Source: Arcticibacterium luteifluviistationis
GTDB taxonomy: Bacteria > Bacteroidota > Bacteroidia > Cytophagales > Spirosomataceae
NCBI RefSeq assembly: GCF_003258705.1
Contig: NZ_CP029480.1
Span: 1,736,001 to 1,800,000 of the forward strand
DNA length: 64,000 nucleotides
Direction: 5' to 3'
This document shows positions 32,973-52,149 of the stretch, one piece after another. Positions within the stretch are counted from its first letter, which is position 1; the number at the start of each line of letters is the position of its first letter. The notes below the pieces were generated by a model that saw nothing but the letters and a program-made list of their open reading frames with translations, ran no database searches and was not told the DNA's origin. The position numbers and the translations under genes were made by a program.

Positions 32973-33013
32973 AGAAGAGCTAATGTAGTTAAGAAATAAT
33001 ACTTAGCTCTTCT
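32973..33013. terminator. Bidirectional hairpin between convergent genes
   Basis: AGAAGAGCTAA (32973-32983) and TTAGCTCTTCT (33003-33013) form a perfect 11-base stem with a 19-base loop. The right arm is the last codons and stop of the LuxR-type gene. No long T-run is present. Confidence 0.55.
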
Positions 33014-34202
33014 TGTTATTCATGATGCTTATGGCTTCTACTTTTGAGTTTATTTCCAATTTTCGGTAACAACTTTTTAAATGACTTTTTACGGTGTTTG
33101 GGCTAATAAGAAAGGAGCTACTTATCTCACTGTACGAAAACCCATTACAGTATGCCGCAAAAATATCATATTCCCTTGGACTAAGATTGTCTAATGAGCT
33201 ATTGTGCTTATCCACTATAATTCGTTTGGCTGGCGGCAAGACTAATTCACTGTCGTCGTTCTCGTCGCTATTTTGGTTTTCAAAAACCTCCGTTAGTAAT
33301 AGCCAAAACATGTAAATTAATTGAATCGTGATGCCGAATAATAAGTGTTTTGGTTTCAGAAATGCAGAAGGGAAATCAGAAGGGCTTAGTAGGAATTTGC
33401 CTATCAATGAAATGAGGAAAAGAAGTCCGAACGAAGTCTGAAATTTAAAAAAGTTTAGGTTTTTACGAGAGCTTAAAATAAGCCATGCAAGTGATGGTAT
33501 TCCTAATAGACCCAGGAATACCCAAAAAATCCCTTGAACTACTTTAAAGTGCTTAACTATTAAGTCAACTTGCCATAGGCTAGCAATAGTTACCAATGCC
33601 AAATAGCCGATAGACAGCCTGAGAAAGATTGTGAAAATTTTCTGAAATATTTGATAATCTCTGGTCTGTAAGACCGTCACTGCTTTTGTTATAATCAAAT
33701 AGACCACTAATGGGATGCTTTGCAATATGAAAAAGTAGATGCTATGGTAAGGGCTGCCGTCTAAACTTGGGATAAGCACAAAAGCATACCCCGATCGCCA
33801 GATATAGAGCATAAGTATACTCATAAACCAAAAACTGCAGAGTATGTAGGGTTTTATTTTTGACAATACTGAGAGAACGAGATAGATTAAAAGAAGTCCG
33901 GTAAGTAAGCCAATTAATAAAATCTCTTCATGATCAATAGGTAAATGGCTTATTTGGTCATATCCGCTTCCTTGCGGTTGTAAACTTAAACCCGAACTCA
34001 AATCATTGGCTAAAAAGGCTGTTATGGCAGTAACACCATTAAATGCAGAATTGCTATTTACTGACTCACAAAAGTGTTTTATAACGTCAATATGAACTAC
34101 CTCCGTAAGATGAAAAATACCACTCTTTTCTACTTTTAGACCTCCAGCAATTGCCTTAAAACTCAATAGAACAAGGCAAACAAAGATGTACTGTTTTCGC
34201 AT
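33003..34202 (-). CDS. Membrane-embedded LuxR-type transcriptional regulator
   Basis: This 399-residue protein has a signal peptide (1-19), an exported segment of about 70 residues, then about seven hydrophobic helices (roughly 92-310). Its cytoplasmic C-terminus carries a LuxR/GerE helix-turn-helix (about 338-399: LSPREYDIFAAYCNGFSYSEISSSF, then SPNTVKSHLKSCYRKL). It therefore joins sensing and DNA binding in one membrane protein without a kinase. It is transcribed away from the six secreted-protein genes at 34458-45005. A strong double palindrome lies between, so control of that array and of itself is a reasonable inference. Confidence 0.85.
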   Translation of the reverse strand: MRKQYIFVCLVLLSFKAIAGGLKVEKSGIFHLTEVVHIDVIKHFCESVNSNSAFNGVTAITAFLANDLSSGLSLQPQGSGYDQISHLPIDHEEILLIGLLTGLLLIYLVLSVLSKIKPYILCSFWFMSILMLYIWRSGYAFVLIPSLDGSPYHSIYFFILQSIPLVVYLIITKAVTVLQTRDYQIFQKIFTIFLRLSIGYLALVTIASLWQVDLIVKHFKVVQGIFWVFLGLLGIPSLAWLILSSRKNLNFFKFQTSFGLLFLISLIGKFLLSPSDFPSAFLKPKHLLFGITIQLIYMFWLLLTEVFENQNSDENDDSELVLPPAKRIIVDKHNSSLDNLSPREYDIFAAYCNGFSYSEISSSFLISPNTVKSHLKSCYRKLEINSKVEAISIMNNKKS

Positions 34203-34301: not shown

Positions 34302-34339
34302 TCACCCAAATGGGTGATACGTTTCACCCATTTGGGTGA
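34302..34339. promoter_or_regulatory. 38-bp double palindrome, likely operator
   Basis: TCACCCAAATGGGTGA (34302-34317) and TCACCCATTTGGGTGA (34324-34339) are separated by six bases. Each 16-mer is itself a dyad with arms TCACCCA/TGGGTGA. The two are exact reverse complements, so the whole is also a perfect inverted repeat. It sits about 100 bases before the LuxR-type start and 120 bases before the first secreted-protein start. Two adjacent dyads fit binding of two regulator dimers. No T-run follows, which makes a terminator less likely. Confidence 0.7.
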
Positions 34340-34457: not shown

Positions 34458-35405
34458 ATGAAAAGAATCTTACTATGTTTTACACTTTTAACTTTTGGGT
34501 TCACTGGAACTAATGCCCAGTCTTTTGAAATAAATCCTCATACAGGAACTTTGAATTCATCTTCGCCCAATTTATATTTAAGGGGTAATTCAACGCCTTT
34601 GATTAGAGGCCTACGTTCTAATGGTATCTTATCTTCTCCAACCGCAGTCCAAGTTGGACAGAGTCTTATAGAGATTTCTGGTTCTGGATATGTATCATCA
34701 GCTACATACATCGGAAGTGTTGCAATAAGAATGTCTGCTACCGAAAATTGGGCTGCTTCTAAATATGGTTCAAAAATCGGATTTTTTACATCTGAAAATG
34801 GGATGGGTGGTATTTATGAACGACTGTCCATATCAGACAAAGGCTATCTTGGATTAAATAATACAGACCCTGGCGTTCCTTTTCATATCAACCACTCCAA
34901 TATCACATCCAATTCAAGCACCGGAGATGCAATAATTGGTTCATTAGGGGGGCAACATTTAAGTTTTGATGGAGACGAGATAAATGCCTGGAATGGTACT
35001 AGTGGCAGTGCGTTTTATTTAAATCGTAGCTCACCTGGGGCCGTTGTTGTTGGGAACTTTACAGCATTAAACGAATCAGACTTGTTCGTAAGTGGTTTTA
35101 CAAGGCTAGGGACTGGAGCAGCTGCACCTAAAATCAAAATAAAGAAATTAACTGGAACTACTTCTGCTACAGCTGGAACAGCGAATATAGCTCATGGAAT
35201 TGGTGATTCAGATAAAATACTCTCCGTTGATATTTCAATTAACAATGCAGGGAAGACTTATATATCCGAAAACTATACACAGTCCGCTGGTTTAGAGTTT
35301 AACTACTATTATAATGATACCAATATCGGCGTGGTTACTAAAAGTGGAAACAGTGCTTCCCTCAATAGTAGACCCATTAAAATACTTATTACTTACGAGG
35401 AGTAG
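34458..35405 (+). CDS. Secreted tail-fibre-like protein without S74 domain
   Basis: The 315-residue product has a signal peptide (1-20, ending TNAQ) and a beta-rich body. Features are AIRMSATENWAASKYGSKIGFF, a segment 'GGIYERLSISDKGYLGLNNTDP' and a Thr/Ser/Asn-rich middle. 'ISDKGYLGLNNTDP' type segments recur in Bacteroidota secreted proteins that resemble phage tail-fibre shafts. It ends RPIKILITYEE, without the S74 chaperone found in its five downstream neighbours. It is first in the plus-strand series after the palindromic operator. Function is unknown; a surface or extracellular structural part is likely. Confidence 0.65.
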   Translation: MKRILLCFTLLTFGFTGTNAQSFEINPHTGTLNSSSPNLYLRGNSTPLIRGLRSNGILSSPTAVQVGQSLIEISGSGYVSSATYIGSVAIRMSATENWAASKYGSKIGFFTSENGMGGIYERLSISDKGYLGLNNTDPGVPFHINHSNITSNSSTGDAIIGSLGGQHLSFDGDEINAWNGTSGSAFYLNRSSPGAVVVGNFTALNESDLFVSGFTRLGTGAAAPKIKIKKLTGTTSATAGTANIAHGIGDSDKILSVDISINNAGKTYISENYTQSAGLEFNYYYNDTNIGVVTKSGNSASLNSRPIKILITYEE

Positions 35406-35598
35406 AAGATGATGTACAGCTATATCAAACAAATATTCGACCTATTTCATAGAACGATAAGAGCATTTAATACCTCCCAAAAGTAGACTTTTTCCGTACT
35501 AAATTCACACCACCATTTACCGTAAAATAGAACTCTCTGTTTAGAAGGTGTAACCAGCAGGCTAACGAATTATCTTTAAGTAAAAGAAAAACCAAATC

Positions 35599-37842
35599 AT
35601 GAGAAAAGTAAAAACACTTTTAGCCTTTATTTTAGTACCCTTTTTACTCACAGCTCAGTCTGTGTTAATTACCCCAGGAGCTCAAAGTATAAATGGAGAC
35701 AGCACCACTCAAAAACAATTAAACGCTTTTGGGAATGGCTTGTTAGTAGGACCAAAAGTTAAGTTTACAGATGAGGACCCTGCCAGTAATGTGCATATTA
35801 TGGATTGTGGAACAACCAATTTTAGTAATTCATTAGCAGGAACTTTAAAAGACCCAAATGGAGATTCAGATTATTTAAGCGGTTTTGCACATGATTGTGA
35901 CTTTTATTTTAGTACTGTTGACCCCCTTTTTCTTGCCTATCAAATTGATTTTGAGGTTTTGGATACGGAGGCAGCTGAAGATACAGTTTTTATCATGAAT
36001 TCGTTCGGGACTACAGTACTGGCGTCTTATTCTGGCAACTCCTTACCTCCTAGTCTAAGAGTCTTAAACAACTCCGTATTGATTAGGTTTAAAACAAATA
36101 GTACTGTAGTAGGAGCCGGTTTTGTTTTGACTTGGAAAGCTATATTAAGAGATGAAATGCCTGTTCCTATTCAAAATTATTCTGGAGAAGGTATAGTGTA
36201 TGACGTATCATCCAATTCCTTATGGGCTGGAAGGCATAATCCTTTAGATTTTGAAAATAAAGGAGGGTATTCTACGGCTTTGGGTTATAATTCAAAAGCG
36301 ATTGGTTCAGTTTCCACCGCCTTGGGTAGTAATTCAACAGCAAGTGGTTTTGCCTCTACTGCTATGGGTGAGTATACAGAAGCCAGTGGTAATTACTCTA
36401 CCGCCATGGGAGAATGGGCAAAGGCAAGTGGTAATTATTCGACTGCTATGGGGCTTGAAGCGATAGCAAGTGGTAATTCTTCCACCGCTATGGGGTTGGG
36501 AACCATCGCAAGTGGTACTTATTCCACAGCGATGGGTAGGTCAACCATTGCCAGTGGTAATTCTTCTACTGCGATGGGAAGAGGTACAGAAGCAAACACA
36601 TCTTATTCCACAGCAATGGGGTACAATACAAAGGCCCGTGGCTATGCATCAACAGCAATGGGTGAATTAACAGAAGCAGATACGTCTTATGCCACTGCTA
36701 TGGGTTATTTTTCAAAAGCAAGTGGCTATTCTTCAACTGCTATGGGTGAGTATACAGAAGCCAGTGGAAATTCTTCAACTGCAATGGGTTATAATACAGA
36801 AGCCAGTGGGAAATCTTCAACTGCAATGGGTTATAATACAAAAGCCAGTGGTAATTATTCCACCACTATGGGAAGAAGTACAAGAGCTGATACCATTTAT
36901 GCAACGGCTATGGGGTTTGAGTCTGTAGCAAGTGGTTATTCATCTACAGCAATGGGTCAAAATACAGCAGCAAGCGGCTATTCTTCAACTGCAATGGGTT
37001 TAAGTACAGTAGCTAGTGGAGATTATTCAACAGCAATTGGTTCAAATACAACCGCAAGTAGCTCTTTCTCTACCTCCATGGGTGCATCGACAACAGCTAG
37101 TGGACTCTATTCGACCTCAATGGGTCAGAATACTTTCGCCAGTGGAATTGTATCTACTGCCATGGGCGATAACACAACAGCAAGTGGCGATTTTTCCACT
37201 GCCATAGGGAGAGATGTTACATCAAATGGTGTAGGAACTTTTACCATTGGTGACTCAAATCCTGGTTCTGGTGTTTTGACTATAGCTACGGATAATCAGT
37301 TTGTAGGTAGATTCTACAATGGTTATTATTTACTTACCAGTCAAATGGGAGATCCTTCACGAGGTGTTAGAATAAATCATGACCAAACAGCCTGGTCTTC
37401 CATTTCAGATTCTACAAAAAAGGAAAACTTTATTCCCGCCAATGGTGATGCTTTCTTAGGAAAGCTAAAAGACTTAAAATTAGGCTCTTGGAATTATAAA
37501 ATTAACAAAGCAAATCCAGAACGCTTTTATGGCCCTATGGCACAAGAGATTTATGCCGCTTATGGTAAAGACGCCAAAGGCACTATAGGTTCAGACACCC
37601 TAGTGAGCACCTTAAATATGGATGGCTTGCTCTTTATTTTTGCTCAAGAATTGGAGAAAAGGACGACCAATTTAAAGGAAGAAAACAATGCTCTTAAAAG
37701 TGAAATTGATGCTTTGAAAGAAAAGTATGATCAAAATGTGGTTGCCAATAAACACTTGAAAAATGACTTTGAACAGCGTATTAGCCAATTAGAAAAACTC
37801 CTAACGGTCAAAAGTGAAGGTGATTTGGCAAAGCTACCTTAA
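35599..37842 (+). CDS. Secreted 14-residue-repeat (YadA-head-like) protein with S74 chaperone
   Basis: A 747-residue exported protein (signal peptide ending LLTAQ). Residues 30-220 are a beta-rich N-terminal domain. Residues 224-545 are 23 tandem repeats of the form [YS]-S-T-A-M-G-x-x-T-x-A-S-G-x, which match the head repeat of YadA/Hep_Hag trimeric adhesins. The C-terminus has the intramolecular chaperone of the S74 family: S603-D604 at the start (ISDSTKKENF), WNYK, YGPMAQEIYAAYG, then a coiled coil (about 690-740). S74 domains trimerise the shaft and then cut themselves off before the Ser. The usual Arg in S-D-x-R-x-K is replaced here by Thr. Confidence 0.85.
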   Translation: MRKVKTLLAFILVPFLLTAQSVLITPGAQSINGDSTTQKQLNAFGNGLLVGPKVKFTDEDPASNVHIMDCGTTNFSNSLAGTLKDPNGDSDYLSGFAHDCDFYFSTVDPLFLAYQIDFEVLDTEAAEDTVFIMNSFGTTVLASYSGNSLPPSLRVLNNSVLIRFKTNSTVVGAGFVLTWKAILRDEMPVPIQNYSGEGIVYDVSSNSLWAGRHNPLDFENKGGYSTALGYNSKAIGSVSTALGSNSTASGFASTAMGEYTEASGNYSTAMGEWAKASGNYSTAMGLEAIASGNSSTAMGLGTIASGTYSTAMGRSTIASGNSSTAMGRGTEANTSYSTAMGYNTKARGYASTAMGELTEADTSYATAMGYFSKASGYSSTAMGEYTEASGNSSTAMGYNTEASGKSSTAMGYNTKASGNYSTTMGRSTRADTIYATAMGFESVASGYSSTAMGQNTAASGYSSTAMGLSTVASGDYSTAIGSNTTASSSFSTSMGASTTASGLYSTSMGQNTFASGIVSTAMGDNTTASGDFSTAIGRDVTSNGVGTFTIGDSNPGSGVLTIATDNQFVGRFYNGYYLLTSQMGDPSRGVRINHDQTAWSSISDSTKKENFIPANGDAFLGKLKDLKLGSWNYKINKANPERFYGPMAQEIYAAYGKDAKGTIGSDTLVSTLNMDGLLFIFAQELEKRTTNLKEENNALKSEIDALKEKYDQNVVANKHLKNDFEQRISQLEKLLTVKSEGDLAKLP
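36268..37233 (+). repeat. 23 coding tandem repeats of 42 bp
   Basis: The repeats encode the 14-residue YadA-head-like units. They have the same length throughout but have diverged in sequence, especially in the last third; codons 8-13 vary most. The +1 shifted frames also stay open for long stretches because of the period, and they are not genes. Confidence 0.9.
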
Positions 37843-37901
37843 TCTAATAAAACCCCTTTTTTGAATTCTTATTTGTCAGAAATACATAAATAGAATACTC
37901 C

Positions 37902-39425
37902 ATGAAAAGTTTACAAATTATTCTTTCTCTGCTCTTAATCCACACTTCTTTATTTTCTCAGATACAAAGTTTATCAAGCGACCCAGACGGCTCGGTGACT
38001 ATAATGCCTCAGGGTATTACTTCTAAAAAGACAGACCCTACAAAAACATCTTCCAACATAGGATTAGGCTATCATACGTTGTTTTTTAACACCACGGGAA
38101 CTTCCAATGTCGCTGTAGGAACTTCTGCACTTTATAATAATACCACTGGTCTTGAAAACACAGCAAGCGGAGCGGGTTCACTTGGTAGCAATACGGAGGG
38201 ATATGGAAATGCCGCTACTGGAAGCTACGCACTTCATAGTAACACAACGGCTTCTAACAATACAGCAACTGGAAGCTATTCACTTTATCAAAACACCACA
38301 GCAACTGGAAATACGGCAGATGGAGCTTACTCACTTTATAATAATACGACAGGGTCTATCAATGTCGCTATGGGAAGGTCTGCTCTGTACAATACAACGG
38401 AAGGTTTTGGGAATTCGGCAATTGGAGCATATTCATTATACAGTAACACAGAAGGTGATAACAATACGGCTACTGGGCGATATTCACTATATTATAATGT
38501 AACAGGACAGATCAACATGGCCAACGGAAGTGAGGCACTTTACTATAACACAACCGGCTCAAGAAATACTGCGAACGGCAAGTCTGCACTTTTTAGAAAT
38601 ACTACTGCCGAACAAAATACAGCAACGGGAAGTGAGGCTCTTTACAATACTACCTCAGGGTCAAATAATACAGCTATTGGACGCCAAGCTCTTTTTTCGA
38701 ACACTACTGGTGCAAATAACGTGGCCAATGGAGCTAGTGCATTACACCTAAATACAACTGGCAGTAATAATACTGCCGATGGAGCCGTAGCACTTTACGT
38801 TAATACAACAGGTAGTTTTAATACAGCTATTGGATTTGCCGCATTGTTGGGTAATGCCACTGGAGATAGGAATACGGCCATTGGTTATGCTGCAGGTGTT
38901 ACCTCTGCTAACCTCTCCAACACCATTGCCATTGGTTCATCTGCTAGCGTTAATGCCAGTAATAAAATTAGAATTGGTGACGCTGGAATAACCTCTGCCA
39001 CTATACAGGTAGCCTGGGACGTAACATCTGATCAGAGGTGGAAAGAAGAAGTGGTACCGCTGCCATTGGGTTTAAAATTTATCAATGATTTAAAACCAGT
39101 TAGCTACCACCGGAAGAACAATGAAAAACAAGATTTAGAGTTTGGGGTAATTGCTCAAGATTTAGAAGAAACGCTTAAAAAATATGGGCTTTCAAATGAG
39201 CAGCTTGGGCTTCTAAACAAAGATCAGGGCGGTTATTATTCTGTAAGATACAATGACCTGATTGCAACACTTATTAAAGCGGAGCAAGAACAACAGCAGT
39301 TTATTGAAGCACAAGAGAAGATCATTGGAGGTCATGAAAAGCGGTTTCAGCAACAAGAAAAACAAATGGCACAATTAGCCTCCGCACTTGCAAATATTGT
39401 TACTAGGTTATCGGAAACTCAATGA
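37902..39425 (+). CDS. Secreted 17-residue-repeat protein with S74 chaperone (copy 1)
   Basis: A 507-residue exported protein (signal peptide ending TSLFSQ). A conserved cap (SDPDGSVTIMPQGIT) is followed by about 16 repeats of N-[TV]-A-x-G-x-x-[AS]-L-x-x-N-T-T-G-x-x (about residues 50-335). A neck (SNKIRIGDAGI, IQVAW) follows. The S74 domain starts at S376-D-Q-R-W-K381 and ends in a coiled coil. The motif S-D-x-R-x-K fits the autoprotease. I infer a beta-roll shaft that trimerises and is released from its chaperone. It is nearly collinear, repeat by repeat, with the protein at 41112-42644. Confidence 0.83.
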   Translation: MKSLQIILSLLLIHTSLFSQIQSLSSDPDGSVTIMPQGITSKKTDPTKTSSNIGLGYHTLFFNTTGTSNVAVGTSALYNNTTGLENTASGAGSLGSNTEGYGNAATGSYALHSNTTASNNTATGSYSLYQNTTATGNTADGAYSLYNNTTGSINVAMGRSALYNTTEGFGNSAIGAYSLYSNTEGDNNTATGRYSLYYNVTGQINMANGSEALYYNTTGSRNTANGKSALFRNTTAEQNTATGSEALYNTTSGSNNTAIGRQALFSNTTGANNVANGASALHLNTTGSNNTADGAVALYVNTTGSFNTAIGFAALLGNATGDRNTAIGYAAGVTSANLSNTIAIGSSASVNASNKIRIGDAGITSATIQVAWDVTSDQRWKEEVVPLPLGLKFINDLKPVSYHRKNNEKQDLEFGVIAQDLEETLKKYGLSNEQLGLLNKDQGGYYSVRYNDLIATLIKAEQEQQQFIEAQEKIIGGHEKRFQQQEKQMAQLASALANIVTRLSETQ

Positions 39426-39522
39426 GTGAACTCATAATCAACAAACGTAAACGATTTATAATTTTCGTCGATGCTATATCAGCGAATTGATAGTTGATTT
39501 CAACGCTCTAAATAATAAAAAC

Positions 39523-41076
39523 ATGAAAACCATTGCTTCATTTTTATTCCTTTTTATCATAAGTCTAAATGCTTATAACCAAATTCAAACAATCTCAAAC
39601 CAATCCAATGGTTCTGTGACAATCCTTCCACAGGGTATTTCCTCCTCACACTCGGATCTTTCAAAGAATACTTCCAATGTAGCATTAGGAACGTTTACTT
39701 TATGGTCTAACACCACTGGGAATTTCAATACTGCAATTGGAATATCTGCTCTTATAGATAACACCTCTGGATACGAAAATACCGCCACCGGTATTGGGAC
39801 TCTTGGAAATAATATAGGCGGGGATAATAATACCGCCAACGGTGCTTTTTCTCTTTATCATAATATTACAGGAAATTATAATACCGCTACTGGCCATTAT
39901 ACTCTAAATAGTAATTTATCAGGGAGTTATAATACGGCTAATGGAGAAAGGGCACTTTCAGTAAATCAAACAGGAAATTATAATACGGCAAGTGGAGAAT
40001 CTGCCCTATTACTTAATACCTCAGGAGATAAAAACACCGGAACGGGACATAGAGTGATGTGGTACAATGAGACAGGCGAGCACAATACAGCTACTGGAAG
40101 AAATGCACTTAGTGCTAATACCACAGGTAATTACAATACTGCTTCGGGCCTTTTTGCACTGAATGATGACACTTCAGGCTTTCACAATACTGCCAGCGGA
40201 AGCTATGCCCTTTTTCAAATGGATGCAGGGGACAACAATACGGCCAATGGATATAATGCACTTCGAGCCTACAGAGCTGGAAGTAACAATACAGTCATCG
40301 GTAGTAATTCACTCGAATTTAAAAAGAGTGGCGATAACAATACAGGCGTAGGTTTTGTAGCACTATATTTTGACACAACAGGAAACTGCAATACCGCTTT
40401 AGGAAGTGGTGCTCTTTATTACAACGCTAACGGTAATTACAATACTGCTACCGCTAATTCACTGGTTACTAACGAAACAGGTGATGAAAATACTGGCATA
40501 GGTTATAATGCTAATGTGGACTCGGTAAACCTCACTAATGCCACAGCTATTGGGTATAATGCAATAGCCCCCTTTAGTAATAGTATTAGATTAGGGAATG
40601 CGAGTATTACTGCTGCAGATATTCAGGTGGCTTGGACCGTATCATCAGATAAACGCTGGAAGGAAAAAATAAGGCCAGTACCTCTGGGGATTGATTTTAT
40701 AAAAGACCTAAACCCCGTGAGCTATCAACGAAAAAACAACGATAAGAAAGAAATAGAATTTGGCATAATAGCTCAAGACTTGGAAGTGGTTTTAAAGAAG
40801 AATGGTTTCTCAGAAAGTCAATTGGGATTACTTAATAAAGGGCCTAATGGTTTTTTCTCCGTACGGTATAATGACTTTATTCCTATTATAATTAAAGCTG
40901 TTCAAGAACAACAAGTACTACTGAGCGGCCATCATAAATTAATTAACAAACATGCTTTACAGTTTCAAAATCAAGAAACTCAGCTAAGCGAAATATCAGC
41001 AGAGATTAAAAATATAGAAGCCATACTTTCCTTAAAATCAACGCTCGGAGAGGGCTTAACAATCTCTGATAAATAG
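39523..41076 (+). CDS. Secreted 17-residue-repeat protein with S74 chaperone (copy 2)
   Basis: From ATG 39523 the product has 517 residues; the signal peptide ends LNAYNQ. The cap reads SNGSVTILPQGIS and is followed by about 16 repeats. Several are degenerate in the middle (for example NTASGSYALFQMDAGDN, NTVIGSNSLEFKKSGDN). The S74 domain begins S-D-K-R-W-K-E and retains LGIDFIKDLNPVSYQRKN and EFGIIAQDLE. It is the most diverged member of the four 17-residue paralogues. An in-frame TTG at 39487 would add residues before the signal peptide and is less likely. Confidence 0.82.
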   Translation: MKTIASFLFLFIISLNAYNQIQTISNQSNGSVTILPQGISSSHSDLSKNTSNVALGTFTLWSNTTGNFNTAIGISALIDNTSGYENTATGIGTLGNNIGGDNNTANGAFSLYHNITGNYNTATGHYTLNSNLSGSYNTANGERALSVNQTGNYNTASGESALLLNTSGDKNTGTGHRVMWYNETGEHNTATGRNALSANTTGNYNTASGLFALNDDTSGFHNTASGSYALFQMDAGDNNTANGYNALRAYRAGSNNTVIGSNSLEFKKSGDNNTGVGFVALYFDTTGNCNTALGSGALYYNANGNYNTATANSLVTNETGDENTGIGYNANVDSVNLTNATAIGYNAIAPFSNSIRLGNASITAADIQVAWTVSSDKRWKEKIRPVPLGIDFIKDLNPVSYQRKNNDKKEIEFGIIAQDLEVVLKKNGFSESQLGLLNKGPNGFFSVRYNDFIPIIIKAVQEQQVLLSGHHKLINKHALQFQNQETQLSEISAEIKNIEAILSLKSTLGEGLTISDK

Positions 41077-41111
41077 CCTTAAAATTATTTGCATGCTTTA
41101 AATCGAAACCT

Positions 41112-42644
41112 ATGAATAATCTACAAATCATTCTTTTCTTATTTTTAATCCAAGGCGTTTCTTTAGCCCAAGTTCAAAGTATTTCAAGTGACCCAGATGG
41201 CTCAGTAACTATTATGCCCCAGGGTTTTACTTCGGCAAAGACAGATTTAACTAATACAACATCTAACATAGGTTTGGGCAATCAAACCCTATTTAATAAC
41301 ACTACGGGAGGTGAGAATACGGCTATAGGAAATGCCGCACTTCATTTGAACACCACAGGAGATGAAAATACGGCAATGGGGGCAGGTGCTCTTGGGAGCA
41401 ATACACAAGGAAATTTAAACACAGCCAATGGTAGTTACGCACTTTTTCACAATACTACGGCCTCTTATAATACCGCTACTGGAAGCTATGCACTATACCG
41501 CAACACTACAGGATCAAGTAATACCGCGAATGGATATTATGCTCTTTATAATAATACTACAGGAGGAAGGAACGTCGCGATAGGTCGGTCTGCACTTTCC
41601 AGCAATACTACAGGAAACCAAAATACGGCAATGGGGGCTTCGGCATTATACAGAAATACCTCAGGTTCATATAATACGGCCACGGGGTACAATGCCCTTT
41701 ATTACAATTTAACAGCGGATAATAATACTGCGAACGGAAGTCAAGCACTTTATTATAATACTACTGGCTCAGATAACACTGCAGTAGGCAGATCAGCACT
41801 TTACAGAAACACCACAGCCTCAAATAATACCGCAATGGGTAGTGAGGCTCTTTACAATAACACCACCGGCTCTAGTAATACTGCCAGTGGAAAACAAGCA
41901 CTTTATTCAAACACTACTGGTACGAGTAACGTGGCCAGTGGTGCAAGTGCATTTTATTTAAATACAATTGGCCGTTATAACACGGCTGAGGGAGCTTCTG
42001 CACTTTTCTCCAACACTACAGGTGATTACAACACTGCCATTGGATACGAGGCACTTTTGGATAATGCAACTGGGGATTACAATACTGCTATTGGTTCTGG
42101 AGCAGGTGTTACGTCGTCAAATTTTTCCAACACCATCGCTGTTGGTTTTGGTGCGAGTGTAAATGACAGTAATAAGGTCAGAATGGGAAATGCAAATATA
42201 TCCTATGCCGCTGTACAGGTAGCCTGGAACATAACATCAGACCGGAGGTGGAAAGAAACTATTGAGCCTATCCCCTTGGGCTTAAATTTTATCAATGACT
42301 TAAGACCAGTTAGCTATCACCGAAAAAATAACCAAAAGCAAGATTTAGAATTTGGGCTAATTGCTCAAGAATTGGAAGAAACCTTAAATAAGCATGGGTT
42401 TGTAGAAAATCAACTAGGGCTAATTGACAAAGATGCCGACGGATATTATGCCGTAAGGTATAATGACCTGATAGCGATTTTGATTAAAGCTGTGCAGGAG
42501 CAGCAAGAGGTTATTGGTGAACGAGAGAAGATTATTGATGGGCATGAACGTCTGTTTCAACAAAGAGAAACACAAATGGAACATCTAGCCTCAAAGTTGG
42601 CAAATATAACTAGCAAATTATCCGAAAATTCTATTAGTGAATAG
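41112..42644 (+). CDS. Secreted 17-residue-repeat protein with S74 chaperone (copy 3)
   Basis: A 510-residue exported protein with the same order as copy 1: signal peptide (to GVSLAQ), cap SSDPDGSVTIMPQGFT, about 16 repeats, neck, S74 domain (S-D-R-R-W-K-E) and coiled coil. Idiosyncratic features of copy 1 repeats are kept at the same positions (AGxLGSNT in the third, NTTAS in the fourth, NVAxGRSAL in the seventh). The pair thus arose by whole-gene duplication rather than independent repeat growth. It follows copy 2 by 35 bases. Confidence 0.83.
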   Translation: MNNLQIILFLFLIQGVSLAQVQSISSDPDGSVTIMPQGFTSAKTDLTNTTSNIGLGNQTLFNNTTGGENTAIGNAALHLNTTGDENTAMGAGALGSNTQGNLNTANGSYALFHNTTASYNTATGSYALYRNTTGSSNTANGYYALYNNTTGGRNVAIGRSALSSNTTGNQNTAMGASALYRNTSGSYNTATGYNALYYNLTADNNTANGSQALYYNTTGSDNTAVGRSALYRNTTASNNTAMGSEALYNNTTGSSNTASGKQALYSNTTGTSNVASGASAFYLNTIGRYNTAEGASALFSNTTGDYNTAIGYEALLDNATGDYNTAIGSGAGVTSSNFSNTIAVGFGASVNDSNKVRMGNANISYAAVQVAWNITSDRRWKETIEPIPLGLNFINDLRPVSYHRKNNQKQDLEFGLIAQELEETLNKHGFVENQLGLIDKDADGYYAVRYNDLIAILIKAVQEQQEVIGEREKIIDGHERLFQQRETQMEHLASKLANITSKLSENSISE

Positions 42645-42758
42645 GGGAGTAGTAAACGGTAAATGTCTATAATTTTCGCTTTACCCTTATATACGAGTTA
42701 ATTGTTACTATCGAATCACTAAAAGAGCATTCTAATTGTAAATAATATATCCATTCCT

Positions 42759-45005
42759 ATGAAAAAGTTACAAATTATCCTTTCTCTGTTATTAGTCCAC
42801 TCTTTTTCGTTTGCTCAAATTCAAAGTTATACGCCATCTGGCAGAGAAGGTTCTATAACCATTACCCCAGATGGCCTAAACTCCAAATACACGGGAACCA
42901 AGTTTGACTATACAAACGTGGCTTTGGGAACAGATGCATTGAGATATATTTCTTCAGGAACCGAGCTTTTTGAGTCAAAGAATAATACTGCCATTGGTTC
43001 TGGAGCATTACGTGATAACATTACGGGATATCGTAATACTGCAACTGGTTCTGCCGCTTTAAACAATAACACGATAGGATACCACAATACTGCTAGTGGT
43101 TTTTTTGCTTTATTTAGTAATACGGAAGGATATGGCAACACCGCTACTGGTGCTTCTGCTTTAAGTAATAACAATACGGGAAATCAAAATACGGCAAACG
43201 GTTGCCTTACCTTAGTTAATAACACCACCGGAAGTCATAATACGGCGATTGGCTACTATGCTTTATGGGGTAACGTAGAAGGGCATGACAATACTGCAAA
43301 TGGTAATGAGGCATTATATAGAAATGATTCAGGAAATTATAATACCGCAAGCGGTCGAAGTGCGTTAAGGAATAATATTTCAGGACATAATAATACTGCA
43401 AATGGCTACTATGCTTTATTAAGTAACTCCACTGGAAGTAACAATACTGCCAATGGTAGGGCGGCACTGTACAGTAACACAACGGGGTATTCAAATACAG
43501 CAATTGGTCTAAGTTCGCTGTTTAGTAATACCGCAGGACATAACAATACTGCCAGTGGAGACTCTTCCCTTTACTTAAATACTACTGGAAATTTTAATAC
43601 AGCCAATGGCAATAATGCTTTAATGAGTAACTCCACAGGAAGTTATAATACAGCAACTGGTGCCAATGCTTTGACTGACAATACCACAGGAACTAACAAT
43701 ACGGCAAATGGATCTTATGCTTTAAATCATAATACTACGGGATATAGCAATACTGCAAATGGTTTAGGTGCTTTGGGTTATAACACTACTGGTTATTATA
43801 ATGCAGCAAATGGTACTTATGCTCTTAGAAATAATTCTACGGGTCATAATAATGCCGCAACTGGAAACGAAGCTTTGCATAATAATACAACAGGAAATTT
43901 TAATACCGCGAATGGTGCTACAGCTTTGTTCTCGAATAGCATAGGAAACAGCAACACCGCAAATGGAGAAAGTGCTTTGTCTTTTAATATCTCTGGAAAC
44001 TTCAATACGGCAAATGGGACTCTAGCTTTAGGCTCTAATAGGTCGGGGAGCCATAATACTGCAAATGGAAGTTCTGCTTTATACCATAACACTACAGGTA
44101 ATTCAAATACCGCTACTGGTCGTAGTGCCTTATACAGTAATACTACAGGACATCACAATACCGCATCAGGAGATAGTGCTTTGTACCAAAACACAACTGG
44201 AAGGTATAATACAGCAAATGGTGCTTTTTCATTATCAAAGAACACTGAAGGCAAGGAAAATACTGGGAATGGCTTTTATTCACTACTAAATAATTCTTCT
44301 GGTGATGGTAATACGGCAAATGGATCTTATGCTTTGCTTTTAAACACAACAGGCGACAAAAATACAGCATCAGGTACTAGTGCGTTAATTATTAATTCAA
44401 CAGGAATCCAAAACACCGCATTTGGACATTCAACGTTAAAGTCCAACACTACAGGATATAATAACACCGCAATAGGTTACGATTCAGATGTCAGCTCATC
44501 TAACTTATATAATGCTACCGCGATTGGTTATCAAGCCGTAGTAAACGGTAGTAATAGAATAAGAATGGGTAATACCAGTATCACACGGGCTGATATCCAA
44601 GTGGCTTGGAATGTGACTTCAGATAGACGCTGGAAAGAAAATATAGTTACTGTACCACTAGGTTTAGATTTCATCAAAGAGCTCAAGCCAGTGGCGTATC
44701 ATCGTAAAAATAATGAGAAGGATGATGTAGAGTTTGGGCTTATAGCTCAGGAGATAGTCGAAACATTAGCAAAATATGGTTTTACAGAAAAAGATTTGGG
44801 TCTATTGGACAAAGATCAAGATGGCTATTTTTCGGTGCGGTACAATGATTTACTAGCTCCGATGATTAAGGCCATGCAAGAGCAGCAGCTTATGATTGAA
44901 AAACAACAAGAAATTAATAATGAGCAAGCAAGTGTTTTGAATACAGTTTTGAAACGCCTTGGAAATTTAGAATCAGAGAAAACCGCGTTTACTGCTAATA
45001 ATTAA
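42759..45005 (+). CDS. Secreted 17-residue-repeat protein with S74 chaperone (expanded copy)
   Basis: A 748-residue member with about 30 repeats (roughly residues 80-590), nearly twice as many as its neighbours. Signal peptide ends SFSFAQ. The cap is altered (TPSGREGSITITPDGLN) and an extra linker with KYTGTKFDYTN precedes the repeats. The S74 domain is conserved (TSDRRWKENI, LGLDFIKELKPVAYHRKN, EFGLIAQEIVE). A predicted longer shaft is the clear consequence. Its 3' end faces the acyltransferase gene with nine bases between. Confidence 0.83.
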   Translation: MKKLQIILSLLLVHSFSFAQIQSYTPSGREGSITITPDGLNSKYTGTKFDYTNVALGTDALRYISSGTELFESKNNTAIGSGALRDNITGYRNTATGSAALNNNTIGYHNTASGFFALFSNTEGYGNTATGASALSNNNTGNQNTANGCLTLVNNTTGSHNTAIGYYALWGNVEGHDNTANGNEALYRNDSGNYNTASGRSALRNNISGHNNTANGYYALLSNSTGSNNTANGRAALYSNTTGYSNTAIGLSSLFSNTAGHNNTASGDSSLYLNTTGNFNTANGNNALMSNSTGSYNTATGANALTDNTTGTNNTANGSYALNHNTTGYSNTANGLGALGYNTTGYYNAANGTYALRNNSTGHNNAATGNEALHNNTTGNFNTANGATALFSNSIGNSNTANGESALSFNISGNFNTANGTLALGSNRSGSHNTANGSSALYHNTTGNSNTATGRSALYSNTTGHHNTASGDSALYQNTTGRYNTANGAFSLSKNTEGKENTGNGFYSLLNNSSGDGNTANGSYALLLNTTGDKNTASGTSALIINSTGIQNTAFGHSTLKSNTTGYNNTAIGYDSDVSSSNLYNATAIGYQAVVNGSNRIRMGNTSITRADIQVAWNVTSDRRWKENIVTVPLGLDFIKELKPVAYHRKNNEKDDVEFGLIAQEIVETLAKYGFTEKDLGLLDKDQDGYFSVRYNDLLAPMIKAMQEQQLMIEKQQEINNEQASVLNTVLKRLGNLESEKTAFTANN

Positions 45006-46260: not shown

Positions 46261-48561
46261 TTAGGAAAATTTTTCAAGGTGCTTTTTTGGTATTTTCCAA
46301 ATGAAGTTTTGATTATCCTCTACACCTCCACTCAATATAAGTTCATCACCACTCTCTATCATGCTCATTATAAAAAATAAAGCAAATCCTATATTTTTGG
46401 AAACAAATGGTATTTCGCTTATTGATACAAATTCTAGATCTTGAGTTAGTTTTACTAACCAATGATTATATGCTCTTTCTGCGTAAATTTTAGTATGTAT
46501 TAAGTAATAATAGTATCCATCAATAAGAATAGGATTGGTACTACCTCCAGTACTAACTTTTTTAGTATGGTACATTTCGTTTCTGGGTATAGAATGTTTA
46601 TTATCTATATTTTGAGTAGTGTGTTTTTTGAAAATTAAATTATCAAAATCTTGACATTTATATATAACTAGATGAGGAGTAGTACTGTATATGAAATATA
46701 ATTCATTATCTCGTTCGAAAAATAACCAATTCTTTTCAAAAAAAACTTCTTTGCCTGCTACAAACGCTGTCTTGTTATATTGGTCAATAATTACATCCCC
46801 TAAAAAATTATAATGCTCATCTAGCACAGACATATATGTATTCCAATCTTTATCTACATAAGCAACACTATAGTACAATTTACTTTTATAATTAAAAGCT
46901 CTATAATCTTCAAATTTAGCCAAATCAAGATACCCAGAAATTGGAAATATCTCACTATCTATTAATTTGAAATCATCAGTTAAAGAATACGCTTTTACTG
47001 TTTTAACTTCACCAATTTTTTCCATAAAAATGGTTCGTTCTTGATTTATATCGTATCTGCTAATGCCTTTATAACCTTCTGTAACTTTATATAATGTTAG
47101 ATTGTGACTGACGGAAGGATGAGGTTCCTTAGGGAGTAATATGATATCATGTTTTGTTTTGGTACCTCTCCAGGTACCTTCAAACATATGAGTGATATAA
47201 ATGTCTTTATCAGTTATTGAGAAAGGATTATCATATTTTTTAGCATCAGAGTGCCCTTGATTACTACCAAAACCATTGATAGAAAGACAAGTTGAGTTAT
47301 CTTTAGTAACGTCTTTTGTATAGTCTTTATCTTTTCCGAAATAATCAATAACGTGTGCAGTAATTCTACCTGGCCCAGTATTAACTAACACCCCTTTATT
47401 GCTAGGATTTTCCATAATATCCTCAATAATTTGCTTCATAAGAGGATGGTGTTTTTTACACGCTATGGCCCAATTGCAAACAGATAATAGCTTATTGTCT
47501 ATTTGGTACCCTATGCCAAAAAAATCATCTTTAAAGAATCCTTCTTTAACTACATTACCTTCTAGTCCAAAAATTATATCTTGATAAGTTATCCAATTGT
47601 CTAGGGGCTGATTGCAGAAAGTATCTGTATCTACATAAACTCCTCCATTTTCGTATAGGTAACAATATCTGAAAAAATCACTTATTTCACCTCTATTGGT
47701 TAATGTTTTATAAAATTGATTATACCCAGTATTTATAAACCATTTATCTACACTGTATTGATTGAAAAACTTAATTTCATATTCAGGATTATGCTGTTTA
47801 AAGCTTTCAGTCATATAATCATTAACATCAAATACATCTAAAGCTGTATAAAAAACCTGTCTTGGGATTTGTCTGTATATTCTATTTTTTTCAACATTAT
47901 CCCAAAAGTATGAAGGTAAATTATCTGTGTTTTTAGTAGGGTATTCACATTTAATAATTTGCTTACCTTGATGAGAAATATGGCCATTATTATGTTCTAA
48001 AACTAGAATATTAGTTTTACCTTCAAAACCTAATTCAAAATCTTTTTCTATGTCCTGACCTAAGTATTGATTAACTGTTTTACCGAGTAGTGCTGGGCCA
48101 GTATAGTCTAAGTAAAACTTATTGTCTTTAGTTTTAACATTCGATAGTATTTTAGAAATAGCTAGTTTTAGAATAGGGTGCTGAGGAGTTGATGCTATAA
48201 ATCCATTCCATAGCCATTTTTTAGCCATTGGATCATCTCTACAAACTATAAAGTTTACATTATCAGATAATAAAGATTGAATTTTAGATAAACAAATAGT
48301 ATCCACATCAGCGTAGACTCCTCCGTGAATATATAATACACATAACCTAAATAAATCAGCTTTAAAAGCACCTGGGATAAGGTCCATAAATGCTATTGCT
48401 TCTTCTTTAGAAAAATTACTTCTAATAAATTCTAAACATTCAGTATCATTAAAGAATTGATAACTAAAATCATGATTTATTAACCAGCTATCTTTAGCTT
48501 GTTTCATTCCATCCGTGAAGTGATTATCTTTCCATGTTTGGAATATTTTTTTCGGTATCAT
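46261..48561 (-). CDS. Tandem GT32-type glycosyltransferase with C-terminal propeller-like domain
   Basis: From ATG 48561 the protein has 766 residues (the in-frame TTG at 48585 would add eight). Two 'DXD sugar-binding' (Gly_transf_sug, GT32-like) domains stand in a row. The first starts IPKKIFQTWKDN and has D85-V-D87 in GGVYADVDT. The second starts IPRQVFYTALD and has D311-T-D313 in GGVYVDTDT. After about residue 490 comes a strand-rich region with VSTGGSTNPILIDGYYYYLIHTK. That region resembles the propeller of GH43/GH130-type sugar enzymes. Both transferase sites look intact, so it may add two sugars in sequence. It lies on the same strand as the GT60-like and Pro-Thr genes. Confidence 0.75.
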   Translation of the reverse strand: MIPKKIFQTWKDNHFTDGMKQAKDSWLINHDFSYQFFNDTECLEFIRSNFSKEEAIAFMDLIPGAFKADLFRLCVLYIHGGVYADVDTICLSKIQSLLSDNVNFIVCRDDPMAKKWLWNGFIASTPQHPILKLAISKILSNVKTKDNKFYLDYTGPALLGKTVNQYLGQDIEKDFELGFEGKTNILVLEHNNGHISHQGKQIIKCEYPTKNTDNLPSYFWDNVEKNRIYRQIPRQVFYTALDVFDVNDYMTESFKQHNPEYEIKFFNQYSVDKWFINTGYNQFYKTLTNRGEISDFFRYCYLYENGGVYVDTDTFCNQPLDNWITYQDIIFGLEGNVVKEGFFKDDFFGIGYQIDNKLLSVCNWAIACKKHHPLMKQIIEDIMENPSNKGVLVNTGPGRITAHVIDYFGKDKDYTKDVTKDNSTCLSINGFGSNQGHSDAKKYDNPFSITDKDIYITHMFEGTWRGTKTKHDIILLPKEPHPSVSHNLTLYKVTEGYKGISRYDINQERTIFMEKIGEVKTVKAYSLTDDFKLIDSEIFPISGYLDLAKFEDYRAFNYKSKLYYSVAYVDKDWNTYMSVLDEHYNFLGDVIIDQYNKTAFVAGKEVFFEKNWLFFERDNELYFIYSTTPHLVIYKCQDFDNLIFKKHTTQNIDNKHSIPRNEMYHTKKVSTGGSTNPILIDGYYYYLIHTKIYAERAYNHWLVKLTQDLEFVSISEIPFVSKNIGFALFFIMSMIESGDELILSGGVEDNQNFIWKIPKKHLEKFS

Positions 48562-48685
48562 AGAGGTAAAAATACCCAATCGCAATGACTAGTTCTGTTT
48601 AGTTTATAAGCTAAGCCTAATAAAAACTGAAATGTAGAATGTTCTCCTGATGCATTTCCTTTCTAATCTTCGTAGCATTCTAAAG

Positions 48686-48740
48686 TTTTTGAATTTAAAA
48701 CTAGATATAAATCCTATGTCTTTTTATTTCTGAATAGCCC
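48686..48740. repeat. Diverged direct repeat, copy 2
   Basis: Partner of 46138-46192 (42 of 55 identical). It lies 125 bases upstream of the GT32-type start, in a 320-base gene-free gap that otherwise shows nothing. Confidence 0.55.
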
Positions 48741-48882
48741 TTAAAAACATTTGTATAATGGTTTGGAGAATACTTATTATTGGTTTAAAACCAATTGAAT
48801 GCATTGTGTTTGTTAGGGAGAATGTGATTGCTTTATAAGCAAAGATATTATCAATGTAACTATGCATTACCTCAATTTGATT

Positions 48883-49866
48883 TTACTTTAAATCACTTGA
48901 ACGAAAATTGAATTTTACATCCGCATAAGTTTCATAATCCTTCAGGTTTCTTAATTCTGGTTTGGATAAATCATTCCGTTTTTCTTGAAGTAACTCGTTA
49001 AGACTGTTTAAAGATAATTTGAGCTTTTCTTTTGGATTGAAATCAGGATGGGTGTTGTAGTGTTTGATTCTTGATGGATAATAAGCTCTATGCCAGGCTA
49101 CATTTTGTTTTGGCAGGAAGAAATCATACCCACTTGTATATGCTCTCACACTTTGGTAGACATCTTCAGCAATGAAATAAATGTCTTTATTGAATAAGAC
49201 ATCTTCCAACCATTTTCCTTCAGTAAAAATGAAGCTAGGTTCTAAAATTGGACTACGAACATTTTTGAATTGAGAATGTTGCTCGTTGTTTTCTTGATAT
49301 TCGAATAAATTATCTTCTGTTACGGATATTACTTTTGGGAAATTAATAAAATCGGGCTGATTTTGATGTTCGAAAACTTCATTAACAAAAGTTGGGGGTA
49401 AAAAAGAGATTATTGGATTTATACTTTCATTTTTCAATTCAAAATAGTCTGCGATTAACATGCTATCCCAATCTTGTGCAAATCGCATATGAGCATCTAT
49501 TTGAAGACAGAATTTTTCCTTTTTATAAAATTGCTTGGCTTTATCTTTTGCCCACGACGGACCTTCAGATTCTAAGTAATGAAATTTTACTATTCGGATA
49601 TCATACTCTCCTTTTAAATCATCCAAAAAATCTGCTTTGATTCCTATGTTTTCTTCAAATTGCCAGCATATTCCAAATACAAGTCTATTCGGGTATTTTG
49701 ACTTATTAATACAATCTAAAATTGTGTTTTTAGCATCTAAATCAAGGTATGCTGAAATCGAGACATAAATCTTTTCGTAGCCTTCCACATATTTGATTTT
49801 TTTGCCTAAGATACCTTCAAGTGTCTCGAGCGTTCTTCTTTTTAGCAAATTGAAATTTTTAATCAT
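48883..49866 (-). CDS. GT60-like glycosyltransferase (GlcNAc-transferase family) A
   Basis: The 327-residue protein fits the PF11397 'Glycosyltransferase (GlcNAc)' family, CAZy GT60. YVSISAYLDLDAKNTILDCINKS and LVFGICWQFEE belong to the nucleotide-binding part. FHYLESEGPSWAKDKAKQFY follows, and CLQIDAHMRFAQDWD is the D-x-H metal site. AEDVYQSVRAYTSGYDFFLP and VAWHRAYYP complete the pattern. Characterised relatives in Dictyostelium and Trypanosoma attach GlcNAc to hydroxyproline or threonine of proteins. No signal peptide is present, so it would act in the cytoplasm. It starts 20 bases after the stop of the Pro-Thr-repeat gene on the same strand. Confidence 0.78.
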   Translation of the reverse strand: MIKNFNLLKRRTLETLEGILGKKIKYVEGYEKIYVSISAYLDLDAKNTILDCINKSKYPNRLVFGICWQFEENIGIKADFLDDLKGEYDIRIVKFHYLESEGPSWAKDKAKQFYKKEKFCLQIDAHMRFAQDWDSMLIADYFELKNESINPIISFLPPTFVNEVFEHQNQPDFINFPKVISVTEDNLFEYQENNEQHSQFKNVRSPILEPSFIFTEGKWLEDVLFNKDIYFIAEDVYQSVRAYTSGYDFFLPKQNVAWHRAYYPSRIKHYNTHPDFNPKEKLKLSLNSLNELLQEKRNDLSKPELRNLKDYETYADVKFNFRSSDLK

Positions 49867-49886
49867 ATAATAAAAATTAATAAGGC

Positions 49887-50915
49887 TTAAGGTGTTTTAA
49901 TGCTCAGAATGGCCCCTGCTTGTACATCAAAGACAGCTCCATATTGCACATCGATGTTCTTACACACTGCCGTGGTTCCTGTTAAAATTGTCAAATTAGA
50001 ATTACTTGGAATTATTACCTCGTCATTGTAAACGGGAATTGAACTTTTACTCCAATAACTATTACTTCCATTCCAATCACCGTGCATTGGTCCAATCCAG
50101 ATATTTTTAATGGGCGTCGGCGTCGGTGAAGGCGTTGGAGAGGGTGTAGGCGTTGGCGTCGGTGAAGGCGTCGGAGAGGGTGTAGGAGTAGGTGAAGGCG
50201 TCGGAGAGGGTGTAGGAGTAGGTGTCGGTGAAGGCGTTGGAGAGGGTGTAGGAGTAGGTGTCGGTGAAGGCGTTGGAGAGGGTGTAGGAGTAGGTGTCGG
50301 TGAAGGCGTTGGAGAGGGTGTAGGAGTAGGCGTCGGAGAGGGTGTAGGAGTAGGTGTTGGTGAAGGCGTTGGAGAGGGTGTAGGAGTAGGTGTCGGAGAG
50401 GGTGTAGGAGTAGGTGTCGGTGAAGGCGTTGGAGAGGGTGTAGGAGTAGGTGTCGGTGAAGGCGTTGGAGAGGGCGTAGGAGTAGGTGTCGGTGAAGGCG
50501 TTGGAGAGGGTGTAGGTGTAGGTGTTGGTGAAGGTGTTGGCGATGGAGTAAGTGTCGGCGTCGGTGTTGGCGAAGGTGTAGGAGACGGTGTAGGTGTCGG
50601 CGTCGGTGGTAGCGGTGTTGGCGAAGGTGTCGGTGTAGGCGTTGGAGTAGGTGATGGAGTAAGTGTAGGCGTAGGCGTTGGAGTCGCGACTAAAGTGGTA
50701 TTTATTTTCTCTCTTTCAATATTTGATATTTTGTCTTTTAATCCACTACTTTCAGGGTTTAAGTCATTATTTAATAAACTTGCTTCTTGAGGTTGTCTCC
50801 AAGCCTTGAAATGCGAAGGCTTATCAACCAGCATAATGGAAGAGCCAAGAAAAAGCTCTTTTAATGCTAGCCTTCTGTTTAAGCCTTTTTTACTTTTCTC
50901 ATCGTCTTTTTTCAT
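49887..50915 (-). CDS. Exported protein with ~190-residue Pro-Thr/Pro-Ser stalk
   Basis: A 342-residue protein in three parts. Residues 1-77 begin with a basic segment and N-R-R-L-A-L-K followed by a hydrophobic stretch ([11 protein letters not shown]), a possible twin-arginine signal or anchor. Residues 78-268 are almost purely P alternating with T or S. Residues 269-342 ([23 protein letters not shown] through the end) are a small strand-rich domain of a type common in Bacteroidota secreted proteins. Such mucin-like stalks are natural acceptors for O-linked sugars. The gene is flanked by two GT60-like transferases, whose known relatives modify Thr or hydroxyproline. It is the likely first gene of a minus-strand operon with transferase A. 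Confidence 0.75.
50112..50684 (-). repeat. Pro-Thr coding tandem repeat, 36-bp main unit
   Basis: A 573-base array with main unit [12 protein letters not shown] (36 bp) mixed with shorter 24- and 30-bp units, all multiples of six. Gains or losses therefore always keep frame. The opposite strand is GG-rich and also lacks stops, producing a Gly-Val-Glu frame that is only a shadow. Confidence 0.92.
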
Positions 50916-51985: not shown

Positions 51986-52149
51986 AATTAATTTAGCAAA
52001 AAAATAAGACCACGACAGATTTTGGGTAAAACGAACTAACAGGTAAAAGGATTGAAGAATTTGATAGATGCGAAAATAAAACCTCAATATTAAGAGTAAT
52101 CAGATGCTGCGTATTGGGATGTGCACTTTTAAGTATAATATTTAAGAGC

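What the first reader, a model, noticed from the sequence alone, without database searches (positions are those of the whole stretch)
34458..45005. Array of six secreted repeat proteins, five with self-cleaving S74 chaperone domains
Five consecutive genes each combine a signal peptide, a long repeat shaft and an S74-type chaperone (S-D-x-R-W-K in four). S74 domains are best known from phage tail spikes, yet no phage gene is near. Inference: a cell-encoded set of trimeric fibres of different lengths, matured outside the cytoplasm. None shows an obvious type IX secretion C-terminal domain, so their export beyond the periplasm is unexplained.
Basis: partly seen in the sequence, partly recalled or inferred. 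Interest (0 to 1): 0.72.

Follow-up and report, generated by a model that had tools for sequence, protein, structure and literature searches.

The report
Bacterial self-cleaving surface-fibre gene array
A Bacteroidota bacterium carries a row of six genes for exported rod-like proteins, five of them ending in the self-cutting folding helper best known from virus tail spikes; they resemble the adhesive fibres recently described in predatory Bdellovibrio, but with a different shaft and no recognised route across the outer membrane.

Summary
Six tandem genes (34458-45005, + strand) encode proteins with Sec-type signal peptides ending in front of Gln. Five end in a Peptidase_S74 domain with the intact S-D-x-x-x-K motif plus a coiled coil. 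Gene 2 has a CUB domain and a 14-residue YadA-head shaft. Genes 3-6 have 17-residue-repeat shafts (g3-g5 about 17 coils, g6 about 30). Gene 1 has no short-period repeat and no S74; it matches the Bdellovibrio MAT fibre tip Bd1334 and ends in a different cap. In relatives, S74 and this cap replace each other in an orthologous fibre locus. The complete genome has 16 S74 genes at 8 loci, all with S-D-x-x-x-K. The flanks are ordinary chromosomal genes; no phage structural gene, contractile sheath or YadA anchor was found. Best reading: cell-encoded, Sec-exported trimeric fibres that work like Bdellovibrio MAT adhesins, matured by S74 self-cleavage. Trimer formation, cleavage, surface display and adhesion are inferred. 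They are not MATs proper: the MAT N-terminal domain is absent. The outer-membrane step is open; the genome has type IX secretion, and one Bacteroidales S74 protein carries a type IX sorting domain after S74. New variant of a known kind.

The parts
34458..35405 (+). g1 (315 aa): signal peptide (cut before Q21), stalk module (res 49-147) related to the Bdellovibrio MAT tip Bd1334, and a C-terminal non-S74 cap (res about 190-315)
   Evidence: PDB 8OML E 2.5e-8 and 8ON4 E 9.9e-6 (identity of the entries); cap conserved in relatives; phrog_3018 E 3.3e-8
35599..37842 (+). g2 (747 aa): signal peptide, CUB-like domain (res 70-178), 14-residue YadA-head shaft (res about 223-520), S74 (Ser603/Lys608, SDSTKK), coiled coil
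   Evidence: Pfam CUB 1.6e-5, YadA_head 7.1e-58, S74 1.4e-7; PDB BpaC head 3.1e-25, cubilin 3.9e-7; residues
37902..39425 (+). g3 (507 aa): signal peptide, 17-residue repeat shaft (res 51-345), S74 (Ser376/Lys381, SDQRWK; Ser codon at 39027), C-terminal helix
   Evidence: Pfam S74 2.8e-12; period 17; AlphaFold2 model, shaft pLDDT about 66-93 as a beta-solenoid; residues
39523..41076 (+). g4 (517 aa, ATG start): same architecture, SDKRWK, Ser375/Lys380
   Evidence: Pfam S74 1.6e-12
41112..42644 (+). g5 (510 aa): same architecture, SDRRWK, Ser376/Lys381; closest paralogue of g3 (68% identity)
   Evidence: Pfam S74 3e-13; dN about 0.21-0.23, dS about 1.1-1.3 against g3
42759..45005 (+). g6 (748 aa): same architecture with about 30 coils, SDRRWK, Ser621/Lys626
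   Evidence: Pfam S74 1.1e-11
33003..34202 (-). Membrane-anchored LuxR/GerE-type regulator, divergent from g1; candidate regulator of the array
   Evidence: GerE 1.3e-13; its weaker full-length relatives in G024, G014, G026 and G021 are all divergent from a fibre gene
34302..34339 (.). Two perfect 16-bp palindromes TCACCCAAATGGGTGA and TCACCCATTTGGGTGA, 22 bp apart, in the divergent promoter region; candidate operator
   Evidence: only occurrences in the 5.38-Mb genome with up to 1 mismatch

Best explanation
The array encodes cell-owned fibre proteins that work like the MAT adhesins of Bdellovibrio. Each chain is exported by Sec and signal peptidase I, which exposes an N-terminal Gln (sequence evidence). 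The repeats form a beta-solenoid shaft (predicted). In g2-g6 the C-terminal S74 domain and its coiled coil bring three chains together, template the shaft and cut the chain in front of the Ser of S-D-x-x-x-K, releasing a 128-145 residue chaperone fragment and exposing the shaft tip (inferred from conserved catalytic residues and from studied S74 proteins). g1 is a related fibre with a non-cleaving cap. The mature fibres are held at the cell surface by their N-termini and bind surfaces or other cells (inferred). How they cross the outer membrane is not shown; type IX secretion is the leading candidate because the genome has it, but no type IX signal is present on these proteins.
For: S74 and repeat domains; S-D-x-x-x-K at the first HMM position in all 16 S74 genes of the genome and in all 30 checked loci of ten relatives; signal peptides before Gln in all six (PMC5837995); S74 end of the g3 model resembles solved intramolecular chaperones 3GUD, MyRF 7DC3 and 3GW6 (Foldseek probability 0.95-1.00); paralogues under purifying selection; cell-encoded S74 fibres shown to self-cleave at Ser782 and to be surface displayed in Bdellovibrio (PMC10769870); g1 related to a MAT tip; S74 and g1-type caps replace each other in an orthologous locus.
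Against: No trimer was modelled, only a monomer (mean pLDDT 73, pTM 0.57). Foldseek E-values for that model are weak (none below 0.001). No anchor, no sorting signal and no MAT N-terminal domain was found, so surface retention and export are unsupported by sequence. No ligand or phenotype is known.
Confidence: 0.66

Rival explanations
1. The fibres are exported by type IX secretion through a signal that current profiles miss or through a partner protein, and S74 cleavage also frees them from the exported C-terminus.
For: Genome has 44 type IX C-terminal domain matches and SprA. A Bacteroidales S74 protein (L035) carries a type IX sorting domain after S74, PF18962 E 1.2e-7. In 198 Bacteroidota genomes S74 occurs in 56 of 154 with SprA and in 1 of 44 without.
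Against: No sorting domain on any array protein. The SprA-negative genomes come from only 3 genera, so the association is confounded by kinship. The small secreted proteins next to two other S74 genes have no Pfam match. Bdellovibrio displays S74 fibres, and no type IX system is known there (own knowledge).
Confidence: 0.4
2. The proteins fold and stay in the periplasm, as a periplasmic or envelope scaffold, and never reach the surface.
For: Only a Sec signal peptide is evident; no sorting domain or YadA anchor.
Against: Repeat shafts, CUB domain and YadA-head repeats are features of extracellular proteins; Bdellovibrio relatives are detected on the surface.
Confidence: 0.15
3. They are trimeric autotransporters of the YadA type.
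For: g2 has 13 matched stretches of YadA head repeats and matches BpaC, YadA and other heads in the PDB.
Against: No YadA_anchor on any of the proteins or anywhere in the genome; the C-terminus is S74 plus coiled coil instead.
Confidence: 0.03
4. They are remnants of a prophage, or fibres of a tailocin or extracellular contractile injection system.
For: Strong PHROG matches to tail spikes; phages carry the same 17-residue repeats and S74, best records 31-47% identity; S74 genes are known in such injection systems (PMC8213781).
Against: Neighbours are a KUP transporter, an enoyl-CoA hydratase, a LuxR regulator and an acyltransferase. No sheath gene in the genome. Signal peptides would be useless for cytoplasmic virion assembly, and the sampled viral proteins with visible starts lack them. 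The viral S74 domains form one separate clade.
Confidence: 0.04

Closest known systems
Mosaic adhesive trimer (MAT) superfamily of Bdellovibrio bacteriovorus (PMC10769870)
   Same: Chromosomal multigene set with signal peptides, trimer-forming shafts, S74 members with SDxxxK and non-S74 members; 13 S74 members there, 16 here; g1 matches the solved tip of Bd1334
   Different: The conserved N-terminal domain of about 130 aa is missing; shafts here are 17- or 14-residue repeats; other phylum; function untested
Phage tail spikes and fibres with S74 intramolecular chaperone (endosialidase, GA-1 neck appendage 3GUD, T5 L-shaped fibre)
   Same: Same C-terminal chaperone with catalytic Ser and Lys; some phages share the 17-residue repeat
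   Different: Signal peptides and chromosomal multigene setting here; viral S74 relatives form a separate clade with SDxRDK
Trimeric autotransporter adhesins (YadA, BpaC)
   Same: g2 shaft is made of YadA-head repeats
   Different: No C-terminal membrane anchor; S74 in its place
MyRF, the eukaryotic membrane-bound transcription factor with the same auto-cleaving domain
   Same: Chaperone-protease domain in a cellular protein
   Different: Different role and topology

Membership tests
Peptidase_S74 / intramolecular chaperone domain proteins | PF13884 above curated cut-off near the C-terminus | tested here: met
   g2-g6, 32.1-50.3 bits against 22; g1 has none
Peptidase_S74 / intramolecular chaperone domain proteins | Catalytic S-D-x-x-x-K | tested here: met
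   All five array members and all 16 in the genome, at HMM position 1
Peptidase_S74 / intramolecular chaperone domain proteins | Fold of the chaperone domain | tested here: inconclusive
   Foldseek probability 0.95-1.00 to 3GUD, 7DC3, 3GW6, but E-values 0.03-0.3 and domain pLDDT mostly 60-80
Peptidase_S74 / intramolecular chaperone domain proteins | Self-cleavage and trimer formation | not testable with these tools
   Needs expression of wild type and S-to-A protein
Bdellovibrio MAT superfamily | Conserved N-terminal beta-rich domain of about 130 aa after the signal peptide | tested here: not met
   HMM from a Bdellovibrio species' S74 proteins finds only Bdellovibrio proteins among 1140 sequences, own fibres included; hhalign of g1, g2, g3 and g6 N-termini gives probability below 1%
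Bdellovibrio MAT superfamily | Chromosomal set with S74 and non-S74 members, signal peptides | tested here: met
   cap exchange in relatives
Bdellovibrio MAT superfamily | Surface display and adhesive tips | not testable with these tools
   -
Trimeric autotransporter adhesins | C-terminal YadA_anchor barrel | tested here: not met
   Absent from the proteins and from the genome
Type IX secretion cargo | C-terminal sorting domain | tested here: not met
   No match in g1-g6, although the genome has the system
Prophage / contractile injection system fibres | Adjacent phage or injection-system structural genes | tested here: not met
   no sheath in the genome

The most novel reading that the evidence does not exclude
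Many Bacteroidota with type IX secretion own a modular surface-fibre system parallel to the Bdellovibrio MATs: one shaft family takes either a self-cleaving S74 cap or a non-cleaving cap, is controlled by a dedicated membrane LuxR-type regulator, and crosses the outer membrane by an unrecognised route in which S74 cleavage removes the exported C-terminal part.
Probability: 0.3. Interest if true: 0.7.

Novelty: new variant of a known kind. Interest (0 to 1): 0.5.

Why it matters
Self-cleaving S74 chaperones are mostly studied in phages, in MyRF and, since 2024, in predatory Bdellovibrio. This genome has 16, and half of the sampled relatives have some, so the fibre kind may be a common but unstudied part of the Bacteroidota surface. 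It makes two questions testable: how a C-terminally cleaved trimer crosses the outer membrane, and what the exchangeable caps recognise.

Tried and rejected
Prophage or injection-system origin: no structural genes nearby, no sheath in the genome; PHROG hits of the downstream glycosyltransferases are to auxiliary or unknown genes, and one of them has no relative in the phage collection. YadA-type autotransporter: no anchor. MAT membership by N-terminal domain: not met; a faint resemblance between the MAT N-terminal domain and the N-termini of two relatives' S74 proteins (L091, L110) gave hhalign probability 8.6% and was left as a lead. Stand-alone type IX domain in the small proteins beside S74 genes at L019: suspected by eye, no Pfam match. 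Phage relatives of g1: tblastn found none; its cap has only two weak viral relatives and no PDB match by sequence. Fold search with the g3 model: the best Z values (18.2 and below) are to beta-helices such as phage tailspikes, but repeats inflate Z and handedness was not checked, so the solenoid class stays open. Single-sequence model of g2 was too poor to use (mean pLDDT 45). Literature searches found no experimental paper on Bacteroidota S74 fibres in the held open-access library; papers outside it were not searched.

Full report
What is there. The window lies at 1,736,001-1,800,000 of a complete 5.38-Mb genome. Six + strand genes fill 34458-45005. All six proteins start with a signal peptide whose predicted cut is followed by Gln, the pattern described for Bacteroidetes signal peptidase I substrates (PMC5837995). 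Pfam finds Peptidase_S74 above its cut-off in g2-g6 and nothing in g1. g2 also has a CUB domain and YadA head repeats, and matches solved YadA-type heads and cubilin in the PDB. g3-g6 have a 17-residue repeat with consensus N-T-A-x-G-x-x-A-L-x-x-N-T-T-G-x-x; positions 1, 3, 5, 8, 9, 12 and 15 are nearly fixed and positions 4, 6, 7, 10, 11, 16 and 17 vary. The periodicity is two to four times the best value in shuffled sequences. g3, g4 and g5 have the same number of coils, g6 nearly twice as many.

Active site. All 16 S74 genes of the genome begin the domain with S-D-x-x-x-K: SDxRWK in the 17-mer fibres of this array and two single loci, SDxRLK in six others, SDSTKK in the four YadA-head fibres. 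The 30 S74 loci checked in ten relatives all have S-D-x-x-x-K too. If the cut falls before the Ser, as in studied S74 proteins, it would release 128-145 residues.

g1. It shows no short repeat. Residues 49-147 match the crystal structures 8OML and 8ON4 (E 2.5e-8 and 9.9e-6), which are the tip of the Bdellovibrio MAT protein Bd1334. Its N-terminal part occurs in a relative fused to an S74 domain (L124). Its C-terminal part is a cap conserved in other fibre proteins. A conserved locus in four genera of the same family shows the relation: regulator, small ORF, fibre, secreted protein, small membrane protein. The fibre ends in the g1-type cap in L139, L140 and L142 but in S74 in L141, while the fibre N-terminal parts (33-41% identity, L141 against L142 and L139) and the neighbouring genes align. 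So S74 and this cap appear to be alternative ends of one fibre type.

Not phage. The array is flanked by a KUP transporter, an enoyl-CoA hydratase and a LuxR-type regulator on one side and a 2-oxoacid dehydrogenase acyltransferase on the other. There is no phage sheath gene in the genome and no tRNA in the window. S74 genes lie at eight separate loci. Phages do carry the same repeat and S74 (31-47% identity in the best records), and marine viral contigs share the IQVAW motif before the cut. In an S74 tree the viral sequences form one clade (support 100/100) beside, not among, the 17-mer cellular fibres (fork 82/80, weak); the array mixes two S74 lineages, g3-g6 and g2. The tree has few columns, so deep forks are unsure. 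g3 against g5 gives dN about 0.21-0.23 and dS about 1.1-1.3, which indicates purifying selection on shaft and chaperone alike.

Structure. The AlphaFold2 monomer of g3 (10 sequences) gives a regular beta-solenoid for residues 50-330 (pLDDT mostly 66-93), a lower-confidence S74 domain and a long C-terminal helix. The S74 part resembles 3GUD, MyRF 7DC3 and 3GW6 with Foldseek probability 0.95-1.00 but weak E-values. The shaft's best structural matches are beta-helices, including trimeric phage tailspikes (Z 18.2 and below); this shows a solenoid, not which kind, and no trimer was modelled.

Mechanism. Shown by sequence: signal peptides, repeats, intact catalytic residues, multigene family. Inferred: trimer nucleation by S74 and coiled coil, cutting before the Ser, release of the chaperone, N-terminal attachment, surface adhesion. 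The inference rests on Bdellovibrio, where S74 MAT protein Bd3182 is cut at Ser782, S782A blocks it, and tagged MATs are surface exposed (PMC10769870). The array proteins lack the MAT N-terminal domain, so they work like MATs but are not members by that feature.

Export. The genome encodes type IX secretion (SprA; 44 sorting-domain matches), but no array protein has the sorting domain. One Bacteroidales S74 protein, L035, has it after S74 (PF18962 E 1.2e-7), so the combination exists. Over 198 Bacteroidota genomes S74 is found in 56 of 154 with SprA and 1 of 44 without; the negatives are only three genera, so this is weak. The route stays open.

Regulation. Between the divergent membrane LuxR-type regulator and g1 lie two perfect 16-bp palindromes 22 bp apart. 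They are the only matches with up to one mismatch in the whole genome. Four weaker full-length relatives of the regulator, in other genera, are also divergent from a fibre gene; those four loci look orthologous to one another, so they count as about one independent case. The best relative, in G033 (55% identity), has no fibre gene in the fetched stretch.

Distribution. S74 occurs in 30 of 59 genomes of the same family and order, with 0 to 26 copies, and in 57 of 198 across the phylum. Some of these may be prophage genes, which was not checked genome by genome.

Verdict. A real, cell-encoded, under-studied fibre family; a new variant of a known kind.

Noticed in passing
window 34302-34339: Two perfect 16-bp palindromes (TCACCCAWWTGGGTGA), 22 bp apart, unique in the genome, in the divergent region between the LuxR-type regulator and g1.
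   Followed up: partly
L017 1040-1426, L018 1426-1761 and 13090-13416, L023 6212-6541, L089, L101: Small LytTR-type DNA-binding proteins sit next to S74 or g1-type fibre genes repeatedly, in this genome and in relatives (one confirmed by Pfam, the rest by eye).
   Followed up: partly
L019 7909-11467; L104; L112: Two-gene cassette of a short S74 protein followed by a 123-131 aa secreted protein of unknown family, conserved in two relatives.
   Followed up: partly
L035 5695-6615: Bacteroidales S74 protein with a type IX sorting domain after the S74 domain.
   Followed up: yes
L139-L142: Conserved fibre locus: 7TMR-DISM LuxR regulator, small ORF of 83-95 aa, fibre with either S74 or g1-type cap, secreted protein, small DUF3592-type membrane protein. 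In L140 the small ORF appears fused to the fibre.
   Followed up: partly
window 46261-50915: Low-GC stretch (about 0.29-0.32 outside the repeat) with two glycosyltransferases beside a protein made largely of Pro-Thr/Ser repeats; possibly a glycosylated Pro/Thr-rich surface protein with its own enzymes. The first matches phrog_28262 over its full length (E 1.7e-246).
   Followed up: partly
window 52114-53451: Glycosyltransferase 43-49% identical to proteins of jumbo phages of Xanthomonas and Stenotrophomonas.
   Followed up: partly
L091, L110: N-terminal domains of two relatives' S74 proteins faintly resemble the Bdellovibrio MAT N-terminal domain (hhalign probability only 8.6%).
   Followed up: partly
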